A stretch of 64,000 nucleotides of DNA. Origin: Lutjanus erythropterus (lineage: Eukaryota > Chordata > Actinopteri > Lutjaniformes > Lutjanidae). Positions within the stretch are counted from its first letter, which is position 1; each line of letters starts with the position of its first letter. The position numbers and the translations under genes were made by a program. Of this stretch, positions 3,757 through 64,000 are shown one piece after another. A model generated the notes under the pieces. The model was not told the origin of the DNA and did not search any database. It saw nothing but the letters and a program-made list of their open reading frames with translations. The stretch spans positions 27,604,263-27,668,262 of the forward strand of contig CM034613.1 of NCBI GenBank assembly GCA_020091685.1, given 5' to 3'.

Positions 3757-4710
3757 TTAGAGGGTAAAGTTGCTGTTATCTCTCCGACAACTATCCGAGC
3801 ATTGAGAGAAGGCAGGAAGAAACAGTAACTGTTGGGTTTTTAAAATTTTCAATTCAGTGTGAATGCTTTTGTGATCTTTGAGTTCACTAGCCTGAGAAAA
3901 ATTTTTCCCACATTGATCACAATAGTATGGCTTCTCTTCAGTGTGGCTGCTCTGATGGTTTTTCAGATCATCTTGACTGGTAAAAACATCCTCACATTGG
4001 TAACACCTGTGCATTTTCTGTCTAGTGTGAGTACGTAGGTGAGCCTTCACAGAACTTCGAGTGGCGAAAGCTTTCCCACATTGTTCACAGCTGTGTGGTT
4101 TCTCTCCAGTATGAGTGTGCTGATGACTTTTTAGGTATTTTTTATTGTTGAAAACTTTCTTACATTGGTCACAGCTGAATGGTTTCTCTCCAGTGTGAAT
4201 AAGTTGGTGGCTATGTAGTCCATTTGATGTAGTGAAAGTTTTCCCACATTGATCACACCAGTATGGTCTCACTCCAGTATGAGTACGTAGGTGGCTATTT
4301 AGGGAACTTTTAGCTATGAACACTTTCCCACACTGTTGACAGCTGAATGGTTTCTCTCCAGTGTGAGTGCGACGATGGATTTTCAGATAAGCTCGATTGG
4401 AGAAAACTCGCTCGCACAAGTCACAACCGTAAGGTTTCTCTCCAGTGTGAATACGTTGGTGGATTACGAAACAAGACAACTGTGTGAATGCTGTGTCACA
4501 TTGGTCACAGTTGTAAGGTTTCTCTCCAGTGTGAATGCGTTGATGGACTTTAAGGATACTAGATGTAGTAAACGCTTTTCCACATTGGTCACAGCTGTAT
4601 GGTTTCTCCCCAGTGTGGATGCGTTGATGGACTTTGAGGGAATTTGATGTTGAGAAAGCTTTCCCGCATTGGTCACAGCTGTGTGGTTCCTCTTTGCTTC
4701 CTCGACATTT
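3757..4710 (-). CDS. C2H2 zinc finger protein, last exon with ten fingers
   Basis: This is a DNA-binding protein, probably a nuclear transcription regulator. One open frame of 318 codons on the minus strand holds ten tandem C2H2 fingers of the form CxxC-x12-HxxxH joined by TGEKPY/F-type linkers. The first reads HSCDQCGKAF and the last YYCDQCGKNF. The linkers between fingers 5-6 (TGVRPY) and 8-9 (TRQKMH) are degenerate. The frame is open from the acceptor at 4710/4711 (pyrimidine tract then TATAG) to TAA at 3757-3759, so the first ATG in frame (4479) is not the real start and would cut off about three fingers. After the last finger is a short tail ending NSNFTL. No KRAB, SCAN or BTB part is visible; the 5' exons are uncertain (see 5255-5600). 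Teleost genomes carry many such genes and the exact member cannot be named. Confidence 0.85.
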   Translation of the reverse strand, partial: KCRGSKEEPHSCDQCGKAFSTSNSLKVHQRIHTGEKPYSCDQCGKAFTTSSILKVHQRIHTGEKPYNCDQCDTAFTQLSCFVIHQRIHTGEKPYGCDLCERVFSNRAYLKIHRRTHTGEKPFSCQQCGKVFIAKSSLNSHLRTHTGVRPYWCDQCGKTFTTSNGLHSHQLIHTGEKPFSCDQCKKVFNNKKYLKSHQHTHTGEKPHSCEQCGKAFATRSSVKAHLRTHTRQKMHRCYQCEDVFTSQDDLKNHQSSHTEEKPYYCDQCGKNFSQASELKDHKSIHTELKILKTQQLLFLPAFSQCSDSCRRDNSNFTL

Positions 4711-20104: not shown

Positions 20105-20232
20105 TATTTACTAGGGATGCACGATATATCGGCATTAATATTGGTATCAACCAATGTTTGTCATTTTTTAACATATCGGCATCCGTCCGATGAGTAAATC
20201 TGGGCCGATATTATCAACCAGTGTTTATATCT
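20105..20232. mobile_element. Fragment of a dispersed 'atatcgg' repeat
   Basis: Contains 'agggatgcacgatatatcgg', 'acatatcggcatccgtccg' and 'gggccgatatt', words of a repeat family common in fish introns. It lies in SERP intron 2, just before the ATGT satellite. Confidence 0.5.
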
Positions 20233-20834
20233 GCATGTATGTATGTATGTATGTATGGTCATATGTATGTATGGTCATATGTATGTATGTATGTATGTAT
20301 GTATGGTTGTATGTATGTATGGTCGTATGTATGTATGTATGTTCAAATGTATGTATGGTCATGTATATGTATGTTCATATGTATGTATGCATGATCATAT
20401 GTATGGTCATATGTATGTATGTATGTATGTATGTTCATATGTATGTATGTATGTATGTATGGTCGTATGTATGTATGGTCATATGTATGTATGTATGTAT
20501 GTTCATATGTATGTATGTATGGTCGTATGTATGTATGTATGTTCATATGTATGTATGTATGGTCATATGTATGCATGGTCATATGTATGTATGCATGGTC
20601 ATATGTATGTATGTATGGTCATATGTATGTATGTATGGTCATGTATGTATGCATGGTCATATGTATGTATGTATGGTCATATGTATGTATGTATGGTCAT
20701 ATGTATGCATGGTCATATGTATGTATGCATGGTCATATGTATGTATGCATGGTCATATGTATGTATGTATGGTCATATGTATGTATGTATGTATGGTCAT
20801 ATGTATGTATGTATGGTCGTGCGTATGTATGTTC

Positions 20835-20865
<31 letters not shown>

Positions 20866-21821
20866 TGTTCATATGTATGTATGTATGTATGGTCATATGT
20901 ATGTATGGTCATATGTATGTATGTATGGTCGTATGTATGTATGGTCGTATGTATGTATGTATGTTCATATGTATGTATGTATGTTCATATGTATGTATGG
21001 TCATATGTATGTATGTTCATATGTATTTATGGTCATATATATGTATGTTCATATATATGTATGCATGATCATATGTATGGTCATATGTATGTGTGTGTGT
21101 ATGTATGTTCATATGTATGCATGTATGTATGTATGTATGGTCGTATGTATGTATGTTCATATGTATGGATGTATGGTCATGTATGCATGGTCATATGTAT
21201 GTATGTATGTATGTATGTTCATATGTATGTATGTATGGTCGTATGTATGTATGTATGTTCATATGTATGTATGTATGGTCATATGTATGCATGGTCATAT
21301 GTATGTATGCATGGTCATATGTATGTATGTATGGTCGTATGTATGTATGTTCATATGTATGTATGTTCATATGTATGTATGCATGGTCATATGTATGTAT
21401 GTATATTCATATGTATGTATGGTCATATGTATGTATGTTCATATGTATGTATGTATGTATGTTCATATGTATGTATGCATGGTCATATGTATGTATGTAT
21501 ATTCATATGTATGTTTGGTCATATGTATGTATGTATGGTCGTACGTATGTATGTTCATATGTATGTATGTATGTATGTTCATATGTATGTATGTATGTAT
21601 GTATGGTCATATGTATGTATGTATGGTCATATGTATGTATGTATGGTCATATGTATGTATGTATGGTCATATGTATGTATGTATGTATGGTCATATGTAT
21701 GTATGTATGTATGTTCATCTGTATGTATGGTCATATGTATGTATGTATGTATGTAAGTTCATATGTATGTATGGTCATATGTATGTATGTATGTATGTTC
21801 ATATGTATGTATGTATGGTCG
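20233..21821. repeat. (ATGT)n satellite with GGTCAT/GTTCAT interruptions
   Basis: About 1.6 kb of TATG units in runs of two to six, broken by 'gtcat', 'ttcat', 'gtcgt' or 'gcatg', often forming CATATG. No stop codon occurs in any plus-strand frame, so all three frames stay open as repeats of M, Y, V, C and H; these are not proteins. The array runs into the assembly gap, so its true length is unknown. It lies in the last intron of the SERP-type gene. Confidence 0.95.
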
Positions 21822-49907: not shown

Positions 49908-52900
49908 TTATTCAACCTCACAGGGTTGAGACTCCTGAACTGGGACACCGAGGTGTTCCTCAGGGTTTATGGACAGCATTGTAAAGTTGGCGGTGATGTC
50001 TTCTTTTTGAAACATTTTCTTCAACGGCGTCTCTGAATTCCACCCTTTGGTCTTGGCGAACTTGTAAACACATCCAAAGAGATCAGGAAATAATGCCATC
50101 ACATCAACTTTGTCTGCATCCTCGACGCTGTAAAGGAATTACAAAGTAATAAACAACCAGATGACAATCATTTAACAGTCACATAGATTGTGACTGACAC
50201 AATAATACTGAGTGCACTCAAACGAGCATTTAAGATAAGGTCTGTAACAGACATAACTTGCTCAATTTCTGGCAGTTGGCTCTGTAAGCTGATTATTAAA
50301 TTCATCTTGATGAGATGCATTAAAAAGTCCCTCCAGGAAGCTGCGATGTTGCGATCACAAAAATTCAAGCAAATTCAACCAGTCACCATGAATTCTGCAC
50401 AGCCTTGCAATTTTGTCCACACTGAAACTTTTTTATATATTTTTTATTTTGTCACAGGTACTGAAAAGAACAACAACAGAGTGTTTGCCATTGTCATTGA
50501 CATTTATCAATGCTCAGTGCACATCTTCATCTACAAATAAAACATATTCTGTTTTTGTACTTGTGAGCCTTTTTGGTGAGGTTACTTAGAACACTCAGAA
50601 TAGAGTGTGATTTTGTTCTTCCTGGAACAAGTTTGGGTTGTATATGAAAAATCGCAACTTTCCCTTGCAATTTTGACTTCTTCCAGCAATTTTATTAGCA
50701 AACAAAAGCCTAAAAACATCACAATTTTTTTAGAAAAGCTGTCATGAAATCAGGCATTTTAGACCGCAACAATCCCCAAAACAGCCCACACAATCTTGGA
50801 TGGACTGATTAAAATGTATAAAAAAAATATTTTTTGGATATAGGTGCATATGTATCAGCAAGCTGGAGACCGTGATTGAGAAAAATCTATAGTCTGAACA
50901 TTACTTAAGTGTCTTAATGATGCACATTTCTGTCTTGTAACAAGACTGAACCACACAACACTCTTAAATAATGAGTTAAAAGTGGATAACTACTGTTTCA
51001 GGTTTTATAAATTATGAAGAACTGTATCACTCACTAGTGCTCATGTAGGTTTCGTATGCAGCGCAGTAATCCCAGCACGTTGTCAGGGTAGGCTTTTTTT
51101 TTACCATCCATCTTCTGGATCACCTCTGGTGGAAACTGCAACAAACAACAAAAACAATTATTACTGTAGTTGTTAGTTGTCTAATGTTATTAATGAGTTG
51201 GGACACTGTGTAAAAATGTATATTAAAACAGAATAAAATGATTTGCAAATCCTTTTTGACATATATTCCATTGGGTACTGAACAAAGGTAAGATATTTAA
51301 TGTTCAAACTGAAACTTCTTTATACACTCATTCTGACTTTGATGTCTGCAACAGGTTACAAAAACACTGTGATGGGGGCAAAGTAAGACTGAGAAGCAGC
51401 ACAGTGGTAAACATGTCCAAATATTTTTTGGAATGTTTTGAAGACATCAGAATTAAAATGAGTGTACACTTACAAAAAGCAGTCATGTTCAGTCTGAACA
51501 TTAACTATCTTGTATTTGAACACAATTTAAGCAAATATAGCTTGAAAAGGATTTGTAAATGATTGAATTCTCTTTTTATTTACATTTTACACAGCACGCC
51601 AACTTTTTTCAGAATTGGTGTTTGTATTGTTACTGTGACCTTTTTTTTCCACTGTTTGAAGGATCCATCCACGGCAAATTTTTCCAATGAACGAATCAGC
51701 TCCGGATCCGGATCCCGACACTTTGCCACCTCGTCCCTGTTGCCAATCTTTGTCAAGTAATAAACTTTCCTGAAAAAAAGTTTAATTTGGGATATATGAA
51801 CTGCAGAATAAACAGAATGGTATCACATCAGATGTACGACTGGAACATTTTTTGTCTGTTTAAACACTTACTAAAGTCAAAATCTAAAAAAAAAAAAAGT
51901 CTGAAAAAAATCACCATCATACCTCATTTGGCTGGTTTCAGTTGTTTTGCCAAGTATTTTGGTGTAGTTTAATCAAACAATGAGCAAAAAAGAAAATGTG
52001 CATATAGTACAAAATACAGAAATATATTAAATATCATATTTGACCAATCTGATCACAATTTGAGACACTTGATATCGACCATTTAGAGAATGGCTGTGTC
52101 CATTGTTGTTGCATTTAGAAGAAAATTTGTGAAGAAACAGATGTTAATTGATTTTTGTTATTTATAAAAAATATAGCATGATGGATTTCTGAACTGACCA
52201 TAGGCTGCAATGAGATGAACTTTAGTCACAATTCAGCAGATGTGGTGAAGAAATTTCAGCTCTGTAGGACGTATGGCTAGTGTCATTTATTAGTTAGTTA
52301 TTAATTAATTAGTGTCCTTTTTCTGCCTGAGTAGTGGGTGGAATTTGCAACCCACCAGGCGATTTTGGTGAGTTTTAGTTTCACAGCTGTTGCTGCACAA
52401 ACACTTTTAGGTGATAAAAATAAGAAAAAAAGAACACAGCCTTGGAACATAGGATGTTGTGTGGTTCACACCAAACAGCATGTCTAGATAACAATCCAAA
52501 CCACCTATTATTGTTTTTTTCTTCTCAAGGGGCCTTTTACAAACTCTATTTTCAATAGGGTCTTCACTTTTCACTCAGTTCTCAACAAGCAATGACATTT
52601 GGCACAGACATTAATGTACCAAAACCATGATTTGTACTTACCCTAAGTTGTATCCTCACACCATCAAATTTCAGTTTGTCTAGCACCTTTATAACTAACT
52701 GTAAAACTAGTGACATTCCCATCACCCTCAGCTGCAACTGCTTAGTGCCAATGAGCAAAAGACCTAGAATAGAGGATGAAGCTATAATAGCAGGCTTCAA
52801 CCTGCCTATAAATGTGACTACTCAGAAGAGCTGGTGTTTCTTACTTACCTGTCATTGGTCCAGAAGAAAGGATGACTCAAGCATTCTTTCACTGTAGGTC

Positions 52901-55087
52901 TGTTTCTTGGTTCTTTATTGATCATGCACTCAATGAGATCCTTTGCCACCACATCTTGAACATGGTCCAAACTGTATATACCGTCCTCAAAATGGTGTCC
53001 TCCAGAGATGATATAATAAATCAGCATCCCTGCCGCCTTAAGAATAGAAGAACAGTTTTGCTATTGAGGAAGGATTTCTCAGTCATCAATAAAGTTTATG
53101 TAGCAGTGAAACTGACCTGTATTTCAGAAGCTGTGATGTATTGTATGTCAGCCTGTTCTTTGAATAATCGTCTACTTATGCCAAAATCAGCTAATCTTGC
53201 CCTCCCCTTGATATCTGCAGGAAACAATAGGGAGAGAACCTCAGGGAACAAAATACAGCAATTATAAATTTAAATATTGTTGCATATTCAATATATTTTT
53301 TAAATTATCTCACCGATCAAAACATTCTGTGGTTTCAGATCCTGGTGGAGAATGGGTGGACTTTGGCAGTGAAGCACCTTCAAACTCTTGAGAACCTGTT
53401 TGACAAGTTTCTTAATCACCCCCTGGGGATTAATAAAGTATTTCTGATTCTGGTTGTGATTCTGAATAATTTTTATATATTCTTCCAGGTTGTATTCACA
53501 AAGCTGAAGACCAAGATATCCAAAGTTCTCATCCTCTGCAAAGTCAACATATCGTACGATAGATGGATGATCAAGCTCTGGAAGTCGTAGAAATCCTTCC
53601 TCATTCTTCAGTACTTTATTGTTGCTTTTACTTATTCTCTTAATAGCAACTTCAGTGCCATCATCTCTCAGCCCCAAGAAGACTTTGGTACCGTCACTTC
53701 CTTTTGCGATCTGGAATTCTGCATTATTGACATAAATCATGCTACGAATTTTGGTAACTTTACTTTCATCAGTGCTATGAAGCTTCTCTAATTTTTCTCT
53801 CCACCTGTTGCTGATTGGCCATCTGCATGGTGTTGATGATATGTTGCTGTTCAAGTCTGACGGCTTAAAATTTGAAGTTGACCCCACAGGAGCTGCTGTT
53901 AGATCAGCTGCAGCAGTGAAAACTTCATCATTTGGGTCTTCTTGCTTTTCTGAATTTTCTGTGTTTTTCTTGGATGCACTGAACTGAAGTGAAGGCACTA
54001 AAGTTATCCCCACTGATGTAAAGATGTCAGCTGCGTGTTCAAATGACAGCAAGTTTCTAAATATGCCGTATGTGAAGACTCTTGCATTAGTAGAGTATTC
54101 TTTTGCCACAAAAGGTGCAATTGTCTTGCATAAGTTGTTGGGATCCCAGCCATTTGTTCCTTTGGTTTTCTGTGTTATCACATACAGTACTTGCAGAATA
54201 ATTTCTGTATCAGGTCTGTTTTTTAAACAAAGCTGTTCCAGTTGGTGGATCATGGCACATGCTTGCTCATTTGGTATCTCTTCTACAGTACACATAATTG
54301 TATATAAATTACAAATGACCTGATCCTCATATTTCTTGGAAATGTTTGAAAGGCGACTGACTGCACCTGCAATGTATGTATTCATATTATCAGTGTCCTT
54401 CAGCCATTTGATACTTCCCTGGTGGTATTTTTCTGAACATGTCCCACTTGCATTAAAAAGTATTTCAATCATGGCCAGATGCTGAGGATAGACCTGTAGC
54501 ATGTAACTGTCAAACACATCTTGGATGGATGGATTTAGTGGATTCATTTTCACTGCAGTTTCCATTTCCAGGAAATGTCTGTTTTTGGAGCATAATTCAT
54601 CTCCTTTGGATGCGAATTTATTAATCATCTGAGATATTTTTTCAGTGTCATTATGATCAAGATCAGTGACAGCACGTGTCAAAGTTATCACTGCACCAGC
54701 AGAATTGAGGACTTTGAAAACATCATCTCTGTCATTGATGGCAGCAGTTTGCACTGGTGTGAATGGTTGTAGATTCCATCCATTTGGATTAGCTTTGGCT
54801 TCAAGCAGTTTCTCCACAAAAAGAGTTGGTGCTTTGGATAGTGACACATAATGCAAAGGTCTACGGCCTTTTTGAGAAGTAATATTTGGTTCAACACTCT
54901 GCTGCAAAAGGTAAGTACAAATATCCTCGTTGTAAGTAACAACAGCAGCAGTCAGTGGGGTTATATAGTCATCCAGGTCTCTGAATAGGTAAACAGAATT
55001 GATATAATTATCGGTTAGTAATTTTTGGAGCGTCTTGAGGTTGAAGGTTGGAAGGAATGTCATTTGTAGCTGTGTGAAGAAATCCAT
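49908..55087 (-). CDS. RNase L-like protein: ankyrin, helical, altered kinase and KEN ribonuclease domains
   Basis: Six coding exons join in frame to 836 residues: 53314-55087, 53117-53214, 52849-53036, 51640-51769, 51035-51135 and 49908-50127. Residues about 40-135 hold two to three ankyrin-like repeats ([27 protein letters not shown]); 190-365 is an all-helical region I do not recognise; 450-690 is an IRE1/RNase L-type kinase (VAIK lysine 483, HQDLKPQN 581-588, DFG 602-604); 691-836 is a KEN domain with IRNLHEH (758-764), matching the R-N-x3-H nuclease motif of RNase L. One giant exon followed by short ones fits RNASEL structure. Oddities: HRD is HQD, about 22 residues of the activation segment are missing compared with the neighbour, the HPFGD loop is cut to HFEDG, and the linker near 370 is short. 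All losses are in frame. A non-coding first exon probably ends at 57370 (donor gtaagt), splicing to 55105. Confidence 0.88.
51190..51630. mobile_element. DNA transposon remnant in intron 4 of the left RNase L-like gene
   Basis: Starts 'gagttgggacactgtgtaaa' and ends 'cgccaacttttttcagaatt' with 'ggtgtttgta', with inverted ends (ttgggac against gccaactt). It includes 'gatttgcaaatcctt' and 'gatgggggcaaagtaagact'. The same element at the same intron position is in the neighbour gene (60320-60900). Confidence 0.7.
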
Positions 55088-57932
55088 TCCTTTACTTCAG
55101 AGTGACTGTGAAAGAAAAAAAAAAGGTAGCATTACCACATTTGGTGCCATTTTAAACTCTAGACAAACAGCCAAAAGCTGAAATGCCCATTTATTTTCTC
55201 TCAAGCAATTTTCCTCAGTGCTTTTAGATATTCACACCAAACTCAATTTACCAACACTGTATTCAGGTGTCTACAGAGGGTGGACTATTGTAAATATGTG
55301 GGCAGGGAATTCAACTTTTATAGAGCTGTGAAATGTCTATAAATAAATTCTGGTTGTAAAAGGATATCATCAAGTGTTTGCTGCCTGGCACACCCATGTT
55401 TGAAAAAACACCACAAACATGCCCTTTTGTTTGCAGCTCGAGTAGATGAAACATGGTATAAGTGCCTTCATGGGTGGCTGTTCAATGTAGAAAATCTGTT
55501 TCAGTGCCCTGTAGGCTGCCCTACATGTTAGAAACTAAGTTGCACTCTATGTGCCTCTAAATGGTGAATAGTTCCCTGTGTTTTTATTACAGACAGTAGT
55601 AGTTATTTTACTTTGTAGCTACTACACCAGGCAAATTTTCCAGGCAAAATTTCAGTGAATGGTATCTTAGCCACTTAAAAAGACAAAGGAAGAGATTTTT
55701 CACTTAATATTTTATTCATTATCGTAGAAACATTACAGCTTTTGTCCACACTGTAGTAGCTTTAAGTCAGTAAGCATAATGACTTTATTTTGGAATTAAT
55801 GTCCAAACATTATTTCTTTTGATTTATTCATGGATAAACTACATTAAGTTCAGTTACAAAATTCTCTTTAAACATTAATCATTAGCAGCATCCTTGCTAC
55901 ACTGACAGAGTGTCTAAGTCATGTCCCTTCCAGTGTGTCCGATGGGAACAAAATTCAGAGAAAATATGAGAATATGGCGAGAGACAAATTCTGTCTGGAT
56001 TCTGTTTGAACTGTGCCACAAATTACATGTTATTTGACATTTTTAACATAATGCTACAAGTCAAGAAAGTCTCTGTTGTAGTTTAAGTTGGTGTGAACAT
56101 CTGTTCTCTGGCCCAGTATACGTCATGACCAACAATCTTGCTGCCCATTTTTTTAAATTCACTGTGCAGCAGAGACAGCCTCACAACATGGTGGTATGAT
56201 ACTGTCTGCTGGAGTAGAGTTGTTTGTCAAGTTATGCACAGTTTTCCAGGAAATGACAGCACAGAGATCAGAATGCAAATTTCACCAGAAGGGAGGAAGC
56301 AAGCTTAATAAGCCCAGATGTGAGCATGTGGTAAACCAGCGACTGTGCCTCTGTGTAGTTACAATAGCAATGAGTTCCTATGATCAAGAAGGACACAACT
56401 TGTGTTATAAAGCCACAGATTAAAAGTTCAGAGTGGTTGGGGGCAGGTAAAGTGTAATTTCAGGCAATAACAGGGCCCTCCTCACACTATAAAAAAAGGT
56501 TCATTCACAGAGTTATGTTACTTAATGTAGTAGATGGTTAACTTTCAGCAGAGACACTTGAATTAAGAATATACAAAGAATTATTAAAATATCCTCTTCT
56601 ACAAGGAAGGCAGCAGACAGACAAAACGTTCCTCGTCCCTCCCAGGCATGAACTTCCTGGTTGGACCAAAATGTGAAAAAACATTTTCGATATCTAAAAT
56701 CCTTATAACACTACAGTTCTTATCCAGAGACTCTTGAACACATGAAAACATATTAAGACATTGATCAGCACTGATGGGATCAAATCTTAAACAGATAAAG
56801 TTTAAAACATAGACACACCCTGCCCGCTTCCACAAACATCTAGCACCACTTCCTTATCATACTGTGGCCACATTCTTCCTTTAATATAATAAAAAATAAT
56901 TAGTGTTAATTTTAAACTTATTTGGACGAATGCTTGCGTTCATCCTGCTCCGACTTCGACTCCGACTAAGTTTGCTGCAGGCTAGAAACTACAGCTCAAC
57001 TTTGTTCAGTCAAACTTTGGTAACACTTTAGATTACAAACCACTAATATTGACTTGAGAATTTGCAGTATGTTTGTCTTATTTTAGTGTGAAAAAATCAT
57101 GTCAATAAAATAAGCTTAGAGCTCAGTCGTCTCTCTCTGTCTGTCTCTCCACTCTCTTTCTCAATTCTTCCATTTACGATACATTAGATTTCCTGTGCTG
57201 AGCATGTTTGGACTGGTTGAACTTTTATTATGGATAGCCTACAGTCTATAATGAAAATTCAAATAACACCATAATGTAATATAGGGTAGATGTTACAACA
57301 GGTAAAGCCAGAGAGACAAGACTAACTCGATAAAACAGATCTGGAGTCAAAGTATAGTCTTGTACTTACCAAAAAGAGGCTGTTGTCACAGCTCAACAGT
57401 CAGTGGAGGCGAACAAATCAGGAAAACATTGAAATGGTAGATGAAGAGTCAAAAAAAATAAAACAACGACTGGTATTTAGACACCAAGGTGCTGAGGCGA
57501 ACTAACACACAGTGTCAGTGTGACGCAGTAAGACACGATTCTCTAATGGGGGGAGGATGACAAGACAAGGTGAGGCCAGTGTGGGCAGGGCAGACAATCA
57601 AAAGTGGGATGAAACAGGAAGGAGATCTGAAATGAGAAATGTGAGTTAGTCAAACAGGAAACATGAACATGACTGAATGAAACGACAAAATCACAACCTA
57701 GGAAACTTGACAAAATGTGTCAGTACTGTGTCAAAAAGACTACAAACTGCATATCGTCATATTCATAAAAAATCATGGATGTTCAATGGGTCCCATGCCT
57801 GGACATTTACATGTATGTTATCTTTGTTTTTTGGGTGGGGATGGGGTCACACAGAATTTAAAATACATAAAGAAATATTAATGACAAAAATAGTGAAGAG
57901 AAACACCAAAAAAAAACTTGACCTCCACCCAA

Positions 57933-57935
<3 letters not shown>

Positions 57936-57968
<33 letters not shown>

Positions 57969-58010
57969 TTATTATTATTATTATTATTGTTATTATTATC
58001 ATTATTACTT
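57936..58010. repeat. (TTC)n joined to (ATT)n
   Basis: About 33 bases of CTT/TTC directly followed by ATT units with interruptions. The TTC part is a purine/pyrimidine mirror sequence able to form triplex DNA. Confidence 0.9.
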
Positions 58011-58898
58011 GAGATGATGACATGTTCAGGGCTGACTCGAGCCTTTTTGGTGCCCCAGTCAAGATTAGTTTTTTCTGTACTGGGCTCTTTTCTCCCTCCT
58101 CTCTATTTTCGTCTTTGCACACCTGAAAGCTGGACCATTTCATTGCTAAATAAATGTGAAAATAATGTAGTGAGGAAATGAAGGAGAGGGTCTCCGTCTC
58201 CCTGTGGACACTTGTGGGGAGTACACTGGCATGTAGCTACTCTATTATTCTATTGTATGTTCCCATTTTGTACTAGTAGTAAATGAAGATGTTTCAATAT
58301 GTATTACCTTCACTTTGCTTGCACTCTGCATTTCAAAGTGTAAAATACTTCATACAAATTCTAGTTGTAATCATTATAGTGGGACACTTCACTTCTTACA
58401 GTAACTGACAGGACACGATTGTTTCTATGTATAACAGGTTAAACCACATAAACAAAGATTTGGTCTCAGGTTTATAAACAGATTAATTGTTACTATGATC
58501 GAGGAGAACTGATGAGGAAGGTGCAGCTCAGGTTTGAGTTGGAACAAATAGTGTATACAATGACTATTCAGTTTTTTAATAAAGTAAAAACATTTAAAGA
58601 GCAGTTCATCTTGTCAGTTCATCAGACTTGATCTTTGACTTCCATAACCCAAACAAAAACACGATAAAACTCATCTTATGATTGTACTTTTACATGTTTA
58701 TTTTGATACTCTTACATAATATAGTTAAAAAGTAACATTTTATGATTAAAACAAAATCATACTGAAGAGCTTGTATTTTGTAAGGCTGGCATATTCCATT
58801 ATATTTTTATATGTTTTTATGCTATATAATATCAGAACTTCTGAGAGACCATGACATCAGATAATAATTGACAGTCAAAAACAGTTTAAGAAACTAAA

Positions 58899-59442
58899 TT
58901 AACTCAAAACACTACCTGTCCCAGCTCTGGTATTTGTCAAAGAAATCCACATATAATTCAACATGTCAGAGGTCATTATATCTGTTCCCTGACTTTCTTC
59001 CCACCACGTTTCAACAACACAGAAAAACATAGGAATAAAAAATGTAAAACTGTATGATGATAAAAGTAAATAATAATAATAGTAACTACAGTGGTACAAC
59101 AAAATCATCAGTAAAAACAATCTATCAAAAATAGCAATAGTCATTATCATGTCTTGTTAATTTCTGAGTCTTTTGGGTGGTTCAACTCTAAAAATGCATA
59201 ATGTTGTTCTTATCACCTGACTTGTGTGTAATCTTTAAATCGTAAATCAGATAAATGTAGTAAAATAAAAGTAGAATAGTTCCATAATATATAATATAAA
59301 ATACAAATACTAAAGTGAAGACAATATTCCTTAAATTGTACAACAGAACATCACCATATAATCCCAGCCTTTGTAAAATAGTTATTATATACAACATACT
59401 GTTTGCAACACCTGACAGACTTATTGGAAAACATTTAGACAT
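58899..59442 (-). other. Hydrophobic minus-strand frames downstream of the right RNase L-like gene
   Basis: 59188-59442 begins MSKCFPISLSGVANSMLYII and continues with a strongly hydrophobic, Tyr-rich segment (FTLVFVFYIIYYGTILLLFY); 58899-59150 has LLSSYSFTFFIPMFFCVV and then a polar tail. The composition could be a chance result of AT-rich sequence. No family is recognised and no splice model was found. Confidence 0.2.
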
Positions 59443-59502
59443 GTCACAGTGCTAAAAAAGTCCCTGCCTGCTTATAAGACTCTAAAGTCATCTTTGAAGT
59501 CT

Positions 59503-62500
59503 TTAGTCCTTTTTTAATTCAACCTCACTGGGTTGAGACTCCTGAACTGGGACACCAAAGTCTTCCTCAGGGTTTATGGACAACATTGTAAAGTTGGCGG
59601 TGATGTCTTCTTCTCTTTGAAACATTTCCTTCAAGGGCGTCTCTGAATTCCACCCTTGGGTCCTGGCGAACTTGTAAACACATCCGAAGAGGTCAGGAAA
59701 TAATGCCATCACATCAACTTGGGCTGCATCTTTGGCACTGCAAAGTAATCAAATAAGTAAACATTTAACAGTTACATAGTTTGTGATTGACACAATAATA
59801 CTGAGTGCATTCACAGGATCATTGAAGATAAAGTCTGTATCAGAGATAATTTGCTCAGTTTCTAGTGGTTGGCTCTATTAGCCGATCTTGACATTCATTT
59901 TGACTATGAACACTGAGATGCATTGAGAGGTCTAGAACAAGCTACTAAACTGACTTTGTTTTGTAAAAATACTTGTAGGATGTTTGTGCATATGTATCAG
60001 CAAGCTGTGGAGGTGTCTGAGAAAAATCTATAGTCTGAACATTACTCTTAGGATTCATACGTCTTAAAGATGAACTTTTCAGTCTTGTGAAAAGACTGAA
60101 CCACACAACATAAGTGAAAGTGAATAATTACTGTTTCAGGGTGTATAAACTATGAAGAATTGTATCACTCACTAGTGCTCATGTAGGTTTCGTATGCAGC
60201 GCAGTAATCCCAGCACGTTGTCAGGGTAGGCTTTGTTTTTGGCATCCATCTTCTGGATCACCTCTGGTGGAAACTGCAACAACAAAAATAATTGTTACTG
60301 TAGTTGTAAACTGTCTAATGTTATAATTGAGTTGGGATACTGTGTAAAAATGTAAATAAAAACAGAATGCAATAATTTGCAAATCCTTGACATATATTCA
60401 ATTAAATACTGAAAAAGGTAAGATATTTCAAATTCAAACTGGTAAACTTCTTTTCTTTATACACGTCTTTTCTTTATACACTAAAAATGGGATGGGGCAA
60501 AATAAGACTGAGAAAGCTGTGGAATTCTCAAAAAACATCTGTAACATAGCAGGTGATAGTATCATGAGTGAGTATGAAAAGGCTAGGACCAAGGATGACG
60601 ACAGGTTCACAGATTGTTTTTGGAAATCATGGATCTTTTGACCTCTGAGCTAAAGAGTAAAAGTACCATTCTGATTGTTACCAGTGCAAAGTTAAAACTA
60701 CAGCATCTGTCATGGTCTGGGGAATGTGTACTCATGGCATCATGGGTAACTTGCAAATCTGTGAAGGCATCATTGGTGCTGTGAGGTACGTTCAGGTTTT
60801 GGAGCAACATATGATGTCATTCAGACGTCTTTTTCAGGGACATCCCTGCTTATTTCAGCAAGACAATTAATCCAAACTTTTTTTTTTTTTTTAGGAACTA
60901 GGGTTTGTAATTGTTGTTGTTGCACTGACCTTATTTTTCCATTGTTTGAAGGATCCATCTTTGGCACATTTTTCCATTGAACAAATCAGCTCTGGATCAG
61001 CATTTCGACAGTTTGACGCCTCTTCCCTGTTGCCAATCTTTTTCAAGTATTCAACTCTCCTGAAAAAAAAGTTTATTTAGGATATTTGAATCACTTCCAA
61101 AGCCAGTGACCATAACGTTAGCTACAATATTACGTGGGGGGTCACGGGTTAAGTTAGAAAAACCAACATTCATCTGCTGTGTAGGAATTGCTCCAGCTCT
61201 GCTGCTGCTTTCTGGAAAACCTCCAGGTTGTTACAGGATTAAGAAAACATCATTCAGGATTCTACTGATATTTGTAAAAATCCAACCTTGAACAATTTAC
61301 TCAACAGTATGTTGTGTGGTTCACTCCATATGTCTAGACATCAACAGCTTTTTCCATAAGCCCTTCACTTTTGAGGACTAGACATCAAACTCAACAAAAG
61401 CAGTGAGTCCATGCACAAATTAAGGGGCTAACATTTAACAATTAAAGGGATTGCCACCGAATTTGGTACAAATACCCATGTTGCCCAGATGATAAATCCT
61501 AATTACTTTGGTGATCCTCCGACTGTTCCTCTTGTGCCACCAACAGTCCAAGGTTTTCACTTTGAGTGTGGCTGTTTAAAATACTGTAGATATGAAGACA
61601 TTTCATCCTGAATCAAAAATGTGAACTTTTTAGAGGGACTAATCCTGTCTGGGAATCATGAATATTTGTAGGCCTACCAAATCGTATGCTGTTCCATCCA
61701 GTAAAAGTAGAAATATTTCACTTTTGATCACAGTTGTACACCAACCCAACAAGTTACAATGCCATTCATTGGATGATTAAAATAAAAAATCAATGACAGG
61801 TATTTTATTTAATCATCATATCAGTCAGTTAGGGTTTCTTCTTTACCTGTCATTGGTCCAGAAGAAAGGATGACTCAAGCATTCTTCTACTTTGGGTCTC
61901 TTCTTTGGTTCTTCATTGATCATCCACTCAGTGAGTTCCTTTGCCACCACATCCTGAACGTGGTGCAAACTGTATATCCCTTCATGAATGTTGCTCTCAC
62001 ATTTATAGGATTTGTCACCGAAGGGATGGTGTCCCCCAGAGAGGATATAGTAACAGAGCATCCCTGCCACCTTAAGAAATAACAGAACATTTTTCTAATT
62101 AAGGATGTATTTTACACCCAGTCATCAATACAGTTTGTGTGGGATAAAAACTAACCTGTATATCAGTGTTTGGTTTGTATGGTATGTCAGTTTCTTCTGC
62201 CAACGTCTCCTTGGCCATCCAGCATTTTGTTCCTGCACTGCCCGTGCGATAGGTTGTTTGGCCTTTGGGTAACCGTCTACTGATGCCGAAATCAGCTAAT
62301 CTTGCCCTCCCATTGACATCTGCAGAAAAAACAGGTAGACAAACTCAGCAAACAAATTAAGTATGATCATTATAAATTCAAATTTTGTTGCTATTTCAGT
62401 ATATTTTTTCACTTGTCTCACCGATCAAAACGTTCTGTGGTTTCAGGTCCCGGTGGAGAATGGGGGGACTTTGGCAATGAAGCACCCTCAAACTGTCAAG

Positions 62501-64000
62501 AACCTGATAGACAAGTTTCTTAATCGGCAGACCTCCATCATTATTTTTGATTAGTTCTTCCAGGGTGTATTCACAGAGTTGAAGACCAAGATATCCAAAG
62601 TTCTCATCCTCTGCAGCATCAACGTATCGTACGATAGATGGATGATCGAGTTCTGGAAGTCGTAGAATTCCTTCCTCATTCTTCAGCACTTCATAGTTAC
62701 ATTTAGACATTCTCTTAATAGCAACTTCAGTGCCATCATCTCTCAACCCCAAGAAGACTTCAGTACCATCACTACCCCTCGCTATGCGAAGTTCTGGATC
62801 ATTGACATAAATCATGCTCCCAATTCTGGTGATTTTACTTTCATCAGTGCTCAGAAGCTTCTCTAATTTTTCTTTCCACCTCTTGCTGATTGGTAACCAT
62901 TTGTGTGATGTTGATGATTTAGTGCTGTTTGAGTTGAATGGCTTAACATTTGAAGTTGATTCCACAACAGGAGATGAAGTTAGTTCAGTTGCATAAATTG
63001 GGTCTTCTTGGTTTTCTGACTTCTCAGTCTTTTTCTTCTTCTTTTTCTTCTTTTTCTTAGATCCACCTTCCAAGTTTGGTGAGCTGAGATGATTCTTCAA
63101 TCGTCTGAGCCCTTCTTTCAGCTTGTCATTCATTTTCATATTTGCAGATGTCAGTATGTCCTCAGGCACTGAAGTTATCCCCAATGATGCAAAGATTTTG
63201 GCTGCATGTTCAACTGAAAGTAAGTTTGCCAGTACACTGTATGTGAAGACTCTAATGTCAGAGGAGTGATGCTCATTTACAAAAGGAGCAACTGTTTTGC
63301 ATAGCTTCTCAATAAAGTTGGGATCCCAGCCATTTATGCCTTTTGTTTTCTGTGTTATAACGTACAGTGTTAGCAGAACAGCCTGACATATGTCAGGTCT
63401 CTCTTTTGAGCGAAGCTGGTCCAGTAGTTGGTAGATTATAGCTTGTGCTTGCTCATTTGGTATCTCTTCCATTGTGCAGAAAACTGCATTTAAACAATCA
63501 ATAGCCATTCCTACATTTATCTTAGAAATGTTTGGAAGGCGACGAGCAAGGCCTGAAATGTAGTTGTTCACATTTTCAGTCTCTTTCAACCATTTAATAC
63601 TTCTCTCTCTGTATTTTCCATGACCTAAAACAGAAAAAAGCCTTTCAATCATGGTCAGAAGGGACTGAGGATCTTCCAGCAGCATGTGACTCTCAAATGT
63701 TTTGAACACTTCTTCAGGTGATTCTGTGCACACAGCAATTTCTGCCTCCAGAAAATAACTGATTTTGGCACAAGATTCATCTCCCTCTGATGCAAGTTTA
63801 TGAATCATCTGAGATATTTTCTTGCTGTGAACAATATTTACAGGATCATTGGCAGCAGGTAACAGTGTCACCTGTGCACCAGCAGAAATGAGCAGTTTCA
63901 TGATATCAACCCTCTCATAGACGGCAGCTATTTGCAGCGGTGTAAATTGCGGTAGTCCCATGACATTAAACCCATTTGGATCAGCTTTCGCGTCAAGCAG
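59503..64000 (-). CDS. RNase L-like protein, tandem neighbour with intact kinase; 5' end outside window
   Basis: Six exons are seen: 62422 to beyond 64000, 62156-62319, 61847-62070, 60930-61059, 60173-60273 and 59503-59737, with all phases matching the gene at 49908-55087. 810 residues are visible, beginning inside the ankyrin region ([31 protein letters not shown]). Next come the helical region, a lysine-rich linker (GGSKKK... with about ten Lys), and a kinase with [22 protein letters not shown] and DFG. It also has an activation segment [13 protein letters not shown] and the SGGHHPFGD loop, so the kinase motifs are complete. The KEN domain has [12 protein letters not shown] and ends [17 protein letters not shown]. 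RNase L is the interferon-side nuclease activated by 2-5A; IRE1 is its ER-stress relative. I see no GKT-type 2-5A-binding repeats in the part present, so the activating signal is unknown. The protein should be near 900 residues. Confidence 0.88.
60320..60900. mobile_element. DNA transposon with Tc1-type transposase fragment in intron 4 of the right RNase L-like gene
   Basis: Starts 'gagttgggatactgtgtaaa' as at 51190. At about 60700-60872 the plus strand reads [19 protein letters not shown], then [14 protein letters not shown] and PCLFQQDN before a stop, matching the central DDE region of Tc1-type transposases. It is longer than the copy in the left gene, which has lost this part. Confidence 0.7.

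What the first reader, a model, noticed from the sequence alone, without database searches (positions are those of the whole stretch)
49908..64000. Tandem genes with ankyrin, helical, kinase and KEN ribonuclease domains: an expanded RNase L-like system
Two neighbouring genes share an architecture close to RNase L (ankyrin N-terminus, kinase, KEN nuclease, one giant exon then short ones) but differ from it. Only a few ankyrin repeats are visible, about 175 residues of an unrecognised helical domain are inserted, and the GKT-type 2-5A sites are not seen. The KEN nuclease motif (IRNLHEH) is kept in both. The proposal is a fish nuclease family that couples a new sensing domain to RNA cleavage. Domain calls come from motifs; the sensor role is inference.
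Basis: partly seen in the sequence, partly recalled or inferred. Interest (0 to 1): 0.78.

Follow-up and report, generated by a model that had tools for sequence, protein, structure and literature searches.

The report
Fish RNase-L-like kinase–nuclease with armadillo domain
Many bony fish carry an unnamed family of proteins built like the antiviral RNA-cutting enzyme RNase L, but with a different front end and usually an intact kinase, so they probably cut RNA in response to a signal that is not yet identified.

Summary
Two six-exon genes (window 49908-55087; 59503-64000, running on beyond) encode ankyrin, helical, kinase and KEN ribonuclease domains. A third copy adjoins them and another lies 6.6 Mb away. 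The helical part, about 250 residues, is not RNase L ankyrin and models as an armadillo-like solenoid. The family is widespread in teleosts: percomorphs, cods, salmonids, carps, catfish. Kinase+KEN trees rooted on yeast IRE1 put it beside mammalian RNase L; both alternatives are rejected. It is not plain RNase L: four ankyrin repeats, not nine; main 2-5A contacts lost; HRD and DFG kept in at least 120 of 122 members. Gene 1 is an exception: HQD and a shortened activation segment, as in mammalian RNase L. Best reading: a cytosolic, 2-5A-independent sensor ribonuclease whose kinase domains pair to switch on KEN. Domains, residues and kinship are shown; ligand, activity and immune role are inferred. 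Whether fish also keep classical RNase L could not be tested. Ten paper searches listed no description of the family.

The parts
49908..55087 (-). Gene 1: ankyrin-ARM-kinase-KEN protein, 836 aa, six coding exons
   Evidence: splicing and translation; Pfam
54683..55054 (-). Gene 1 ankyrin region (about residues 12-135)
   Evidence: Pfam Ank_2 48-135; the family profile of this part aligns with RNase L repeats 1-4
53960..54670 (-). Gene 1 armadillo-like helical domain (about residues 140-376, limits inferred from gene 2)
   Evidence: family alignment; the model was made on the gene 2 domain
52849..53734 (-). Gene 1 kinase domain over exons 1-3: HQD instead of HRD; exons 2 and 3 shorter than in gene 2 by 66 and 36 bases, in frame
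49908..51769 (-). Gene 1 KEN ribonuclease domain (exons 4-6), IRNLHEH kept
59503..64000 (-). Gene 2: same architecture, 913 aa; first 103 codons lie beyond the window (L003:309-1)
63104..63853 (-). Gene 2 armadillo-like helical domain (residues 153-402)
61847..62842 (-). Gene 2 kinase domain (exons 1-3), K532, HRD 619-621, DFG 639-641 intact
59503..61059 (-). Gene 2 KEN ribonuclease domain (exons 4-6), R830, N831, H835 kept

Best explanation
A multi-copy teleost family of cytosolic sensor ribonucleases, sister to or descended from RNase L, in which an armadillo-like solenoid stands where RNase L has ankyrin repeats 5-9. Proposed working: an unknown ligand (a peptide, protein or nucleotide) binds the ankyrin-armadillo front end and brings two molecules together; the kinase domains pair and phosphorylate each other; the KEN domains then form the composite active site that cuts single-stranded RNA. 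Gene 1 would be a paralogue with a degraded kinase that, like RNase L, would depend on ligand-driven dimerisation, or act as partner of gene 2. Shown: gene structures, domains, catalytic residues, kinship, loss of main 2-5A contacts. Inferred: ligand, dimerisation, nuclease activity, immune role.
For: Architecture in both genes and in all 53 full-length homologues of alignment A2 (54 members scanned, the other one being the helical fragment). Of 122 full-length members (of 163 listed): ATP lysine 122, HRD arginine 121, DFG aspartate 120, KEN arginine and histidine 121 each, KEN asparagine 119. Kinase+KEN trees rooted on yeast IRE1 join the family with mammalian RNase L, support 99.9/100 and 100/100; alternatives p-AU 0.012 and 0.006, 0.021 and 0.007. 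Ankyrin part aligns with RNase L repeats 1-4 (HHalign 99.3%). The full-length model ranks RNase L chains 1-19 and IRE1 next in Foldseek, with poor superposition (TM about 0.2). Helical part models as armadillo-like. No candidate membrane helix (best 19-residue hydropathy 1.34). The helical domain is the least conserved of the four folded domains in 9 of 10 comparisons with gene 2, e.g. catfish P0281: ARM 30%, ankyrin 50%, kinase 66%, KEN 49%. Copies group by lineage; eight Sarotherodon rows share one contig length.
Against: Plain sequence similarity is higher to IRE1 (29-32%) than to RNase L (25-30%), and the PDB search scores IRE1 at 173 bits against 96 for RNase L. RNase L sits on a very long branch (2.3 and 2.1 substitutions per site), so long-branch attraction could distort the placement; the unconstrained KEN-only tree nests RNase L inside the family, weakly. 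Only mammalian RNase L was sampled. Within percomorph-rich alignment A1 ankyrin and ARM are equally conserved (0.586 and 0.574), so a faster sensor is seen only over longer distances. Armadillo-like folds bind many things, so the fold names no ligand. No ISRE-type motif in the flanks scanned. No expression or activity data.
Confidence: 0.62

Rival explanations
1. They are the teleost orthologues of RNase L: the same gene, rearranged in fish, not a separate paralogue.
For: Sister to mammalian RNase L; ankyrin part in register with RNase L repeats 1-4 and KEN aligned at 98.9% probability. The giant first coding exon ending in the kinase catalytic loop plus five short exons agrees with human RNASEL as I recall it; no call tested that.
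Against: Front-end domain differs, W60 and K89 equivalents lost, HRD and DFG intact in at least 120 of 122, several copies in some species. Orthology cannot be told without classical RNase L from non-teleost fish.
Confidence: 0.4
2. IRE1 duplicates that took on ankyrin and armadillo domains, independent of RNase L, working in stress signalling.
For: Higher raw similarity to IRE1; intact kinase; databases call some members IRE1-like, ireA, irlB.
Against: No shared intron position seen with this genome's own IRE1 genes on C19 and C3, judged from tblastn ends; rooted trees reject grouping with animal IRE1 (p-AU 0.012 and 0.021); no membrane segment; KEN motif IRNLHEH resembles IRNLGEH of RNase L rather than MRNKKHH of IRE1.
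Confidence: 0.15
3. Gene 1 is a decaying pseudogene and only gene 2 works.
For: Lost HRD arginine, 66 and 36 bases missing from the kinase exons, long branch.
Against: Open over 836 codons in six exons; both losses keep frame; KEN 81% identical to gene 2; pairwise dN/dS 0.52 overall and 0.34 in the kinase (a pair average cannot assign constraint to gene 1 alone). RNase L itself works with such a kinase.
Confidence: 0.25

Closest known systems
RNase L (2-5A-dependent ribonuclease, RNASEL)
   Same: Ankyrin repeats 1-4, kinase fold, KEN nuclease with R-N-H; sister in rooted trees. Gene 1 shares HQD and the shortened activation segment.
   Different: No match to repeats 5-9; armadillo-like domain instead; W60 and K89 equivalents not kept; HRD and DFG intact in at least 120 of 122 members.
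IRE1 (ERN1/ERN2)
   Same: Intact kinase followed by KEN, 29-32% identity.
   Different: No membrane segment, ankyrin and armadillo front end, no shared intron position seen.
KEN-domain expansions in Oikopleura and monocot plants (HEPN survey, PMC3710099, passages read)
   Same: Lineage-specific KEN expansion that those authors predict to be defensive.
   Different: Those are KEN expansions apart from the kinase; its table notes kinase-KEN with ankyrin repeats in some proteins, but no word beginning with 'fish' occurs in it.

Membership tests
RNase L | Nine ankyrin repeats | tested here: not met
   Four helix pairs modelled (P0003); the region behind them does not match RNase L ankyrin (probability 0.1)
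RNase L | 2-5A contact residues (named in PMC5927464, passages) | tested here: not met
   Of 122: W60 -> I/V/M/F/L in 121, one gap; K89 -> S in 117, N/C/T in four, one gap; E131 -> T/I/V/L/C/Y in 101, the other 21 not shown; F126 kept as F in 64; R155 lies outside the shared part. Repeat 9 is not present
RNase L | Pseudokinase | tested here: not met
   HRD arginine and DFG aspartate kept in 121 and 120 of 122; pseudokinase marks only in gene 1 and P0060
RNase L | KEN domain with R, N and H | tested here: met
   121, 119 and 121 of 122; same triad in 111, 109 and 111 of 111 RNase L
RNase L | Activation by 2-5A from OAS enzymes | tested here: inconclusive
   OAS1_C (PF10421): no match in this genome, but no control genome rang either
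RNase L | Common ancestry with RNase L to the exclusion of IRE1 | tested here: met
   p-AU of alternatives 0.006-0.021 for kinase+KEN, 0.014-0.026 for each alone; only mammalian RNase L sampled, long branch
IRE1 | Luminal sensor and membrane segment | tested here: not met
   Starts with ankyrin repeats; no hydrophobic helix (hydropathy only)
IRE1 | Intact kinase plus KEN | tested here: met
   (not gene 1)
IRE1 | Splicing of XBP1-type RNA under ER stress | not testable with these tools
   needs experiment
Armadillo-repeat fold | Helical solenoid of armadillo type | tested here: inconclusive

The most novel reading that the evidence does not exclude
Teleosts run a second, 2-5A-independent RNase-L-type system: an ankyrin-armadillo sensor drives an active kinase-KEN enzyme, the sensor diversifies by tandem duplication while the nuclease exons are homogenised between copies, and in single paralogues the kinase degenerates into an RNase-L-style pseudokinase, re-enacting how RNase L may have arisen.
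Probability: 0.4. Interest if true: 0.78.

Novelty: new variant of a known kind. Interest (0 to 1): 0.6.

Why it matters
RNase L is described (PMC5927464, passages) as a pseudokinase whose dimer is built by 2-5A. A fish sister family with the kinase intact and another sensor domain would show what its ancestor could have looked like, would give fish an RNA-decay system that does not need 2-5A, and offers, in gene 1 against gene 2, a pair for testing why RNase L lost its kinase. Database rows call members 'uncharacterized', 'IRE1-like', 'ireA' or by plainly wrong names.

Tried and rejected
Helical region as ordinary RNase L ankyrin: rejected. Viral library BFVD: nothing at E<=0.001. NCBIfam on three homologues: only weak kinase and ankyrin matches far below cut-offs. 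Rfam over the window: nothing. Phage records with a gene 2 exon: no match. PF06479 over this genome found only one KEN exon each of the two IRE1 genes and not the family itself, so it cannot show absence of RNase L. The full-length model has low overall confidence (pTM 0.46; kinase C-lobe blocks at 36-71 pLDDT), so I do not use its domain packing. ISRE motif GAAANNGAAAC: four in the window against 1.06 expected, one of 100 shuffles as high, but none in the 5' flank of gene 1 (one is inside its coding exon 1) and none in L003; the short form in L003 gives one match, inside the third copy, not above chance. Human RNase L as protein query: 241 hits, 120 listed, the named ones all mammals, so fish RNase L stays unsampled. 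Papers: ten searches (two of them on other points) listed nothing on the family in this open-access library. Besides PMC3710099 and PMC5927464 I saw passages of PMC6540555, PMC6497758, PMC6723221, PMC6019448, PMC4419793 and PMC7157566: none describes a fish RNase L; PMC6497758 draws an OAS-RNASEL step in its account of teleost Mda5, on a mammalian model.

Full report
What is there. On the minus strand lie two tandem genes with the same six-exon coding layout: one giant exon, then five short ones. Gene 1 codes for 836 aa and gene 2 for 913 aa, the first 103 codons of gene 2 lying just beyond the window. Pfam finds ankyrin repeats, a protein kinase and the KEN domain (Ribonuc_2-5A) above cut-off in both. 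Over 816 aligned residues they are 67% identical. Further copies exist: exons 5-6 of a third gene at L003:6267-6178 and 5560-5360, and a locus about 6.6 Mb away on the same contig. Both are incomplete as assembled, running into stretches that read N. So this genome holds at least four copies.

Distribution. One search found 233 homologues; the 120 listed are, where named, percomorphs plus Centroberyx (grouping recalled; two rows also bear a Mustela label). One search, with the query lengthened so that short fragments fell out, found 452, and its 120 rows reach Myripristis, Gadus, Merluccius, Salmo, Oncorhynchus, Coregonus, Umbra, Osmerus, carps and their kin, a loach and a catfish, at 45-51% identity for the most distant and mostly 94% or more cover. 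Both lists are truncated, so nothing is said about eels, bonytongues, gars or other vertebrates. In the tree of the listed proteins of 840-960 aa, copies group by lineage, above all in cichlids; eight Sarotherodon rows lie on a contig of one length. Rows are clusters and may include isoforms, so they are not gene counts.

Catalytic state. Of 122 full-length members (880-965 aa; 163 listed), the ATP lysine is kept in 122, HRD histidine, arginine, aspartate in 122, 121, 122, DFG aspartate in 120, KEN arginine, asparagine, histidine in 121, 119, 121. The exceptions are P0060 (sea bass isoform; HQD, GFG), P0265 (a gene model without the KEN motif and with a broken DFG region) and two with the KEN asparagine changed (P0071, P0249). 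Gene 1 is another: HQD, and the stretch from ADF to the VAGM position is 25 residues, against 46-51 in 121 of the other 123 sequences; P0060 has 37 and P0265 15. In mammalian RNase L (111 sequences) the HRD arginine is Q in 100, and the corresponding stretch is 20-21 residues in 109. Gene 1 thus shows two marks of the RNase L pseudokinase. Because it nests in the fish family among HRD-bearing relatives, convergence is the simplest account. Whether P0060 shares gene 1's HQD by descent is open.

Kinship. Identity over kinase plus KEN is 29-32% to IRE1 and 25-30% to RNase L, while RNase L and IRE1 share 24-26%. Rooted on yeast IRE1, family plus RNase L form a clade with support 99.9/100 (2 RNase L, 14 family) and 100/100 (14 mammalian RNase L, 21 family sequences, 316 columns), the family itself at 98/73 and 96.7/96. 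Grouping the family with animal IRE1 has p-AU 0.012 and 0.021; grouping RNase L with animal IRE1 0.006 and 0.007. Kinase alone and KEN alone agree under the constrained test (p-AU 0.014-0.026), though for KEN the margin is small (p-KH 0.048, and one alternative is not excluded by c-ELW), and the unconstrained KEN tree nests RNase L within the family with weak support. RNase L's branch is very long, so I hold the placement at moderate confidence. The IRE1 genes of this genome, on C19 and C3, break their kinase into several exons, and I saw no junction shared with the family, judged from tblastn ends. The RNASEL exon layout, which I recall as similar to the family's, was not tested.

2-5A. PMC5927464 (passages) names W60 and K89 (repeat 2), residues of repeats 4 and 9, and a pocket shared between repeats 2 and 4 of one protomer and repeat 9 plus pseudokinase of the other. 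In the family W60 is I/V/M/F/L in 121 of 122, K89 is S in 117 and never K, E131 is T/I/V/L/C/Y in 101 (the rest not shown), and F126 is F in 64; nothing matches the later repeats. Binding of 2-5A in the RNase L manner is therefore unlikely. OAS1_C gave no match in this genome, but the control was silent too.

Evolution of the pair. DNA identity of genes 1 and 2 is 76, 80, 86, 84, 97 and 92% in exons 1-6 and 45-77% in the introns; dS is 0.16 in KEN against 0.37 in the kinase and 0.64 in ARM. That pattern suggests, without proving, short gene-conversion tracts at the nuclease end while the front end diverges; the introns beside exon 5 are only 63 and 75% alike, so any tract is short. dN/dS is below 1 in every domain (0.34-0.83, NG86).

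Mechanism. By established knowledge of IRE1 and RNase L, KEN nucleases act as dimers. An intact kinase in most members suggests autophosphorylation as in IRE1; the absence of a membrane segment and the ankyrin front suggest a cytosolic ligand as in RNase L. The armadillo part, least conserved of the folded domains in 9 of 10 comparisons, is the likeliest sensor. All of that is inference.

Verdict. Real, coherent and, as far as ten searches of the open-access library show, undescribed there. It is a variant of the IRE1/RNase L kind rather than a new kind.

Noticed in passing
window 53117-53214 and 52849-53036 against 62156-62319 and 61847-62070: Gene 1 is shorter than gene 2 by 66 and 36 bases, in frame, within the kinase; with HQD this copies the RNase L pseudokinase signature. 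Sea bass P0060 shows a similar, not identical, decay.
   Followed up: yes
window 51035-51135 and 60173-60273; 49908-50127 and 59503-59737: KEN exons 5 and 6 of the two genes are 97% and 92% identical against 76% in exon 1: possible gene conversion.
   Followed up: partly
L003:5360-6267, L017 and L019: A third tandem copy and a further copy 6.6 Mb away, both incomplete as assembled; the latter has a long acidic insert in its kinase.
   Followed up: partly
window 20172-21750: Simple repeat open in three + frames (MYVCMYVHMYVCM...), seen in the ORF list.
   Followed up: no
window 3757-4710: 317-residue open frame of C2H2 zinc fingers, recognised by eye.
   Followed up: no
database rows P0032, P0034, P0035, P0041, P0063, P0064, P0067, P0106: Sarotherodon galilaeus copies carry wrong names (mesothelin, ferritin heavy chain, AMP deaminase and others); P0075 and P0084 are also labelled Mustela, probably mislabelled.
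   Followed up: no
P0242-P0245, P0001, P0002: Sparus, Scortum and Acanthopagrus gene models of 1326-1979 aa, longer than one family unit: fused neighbours in the model or real fusions.
   Followed up: no
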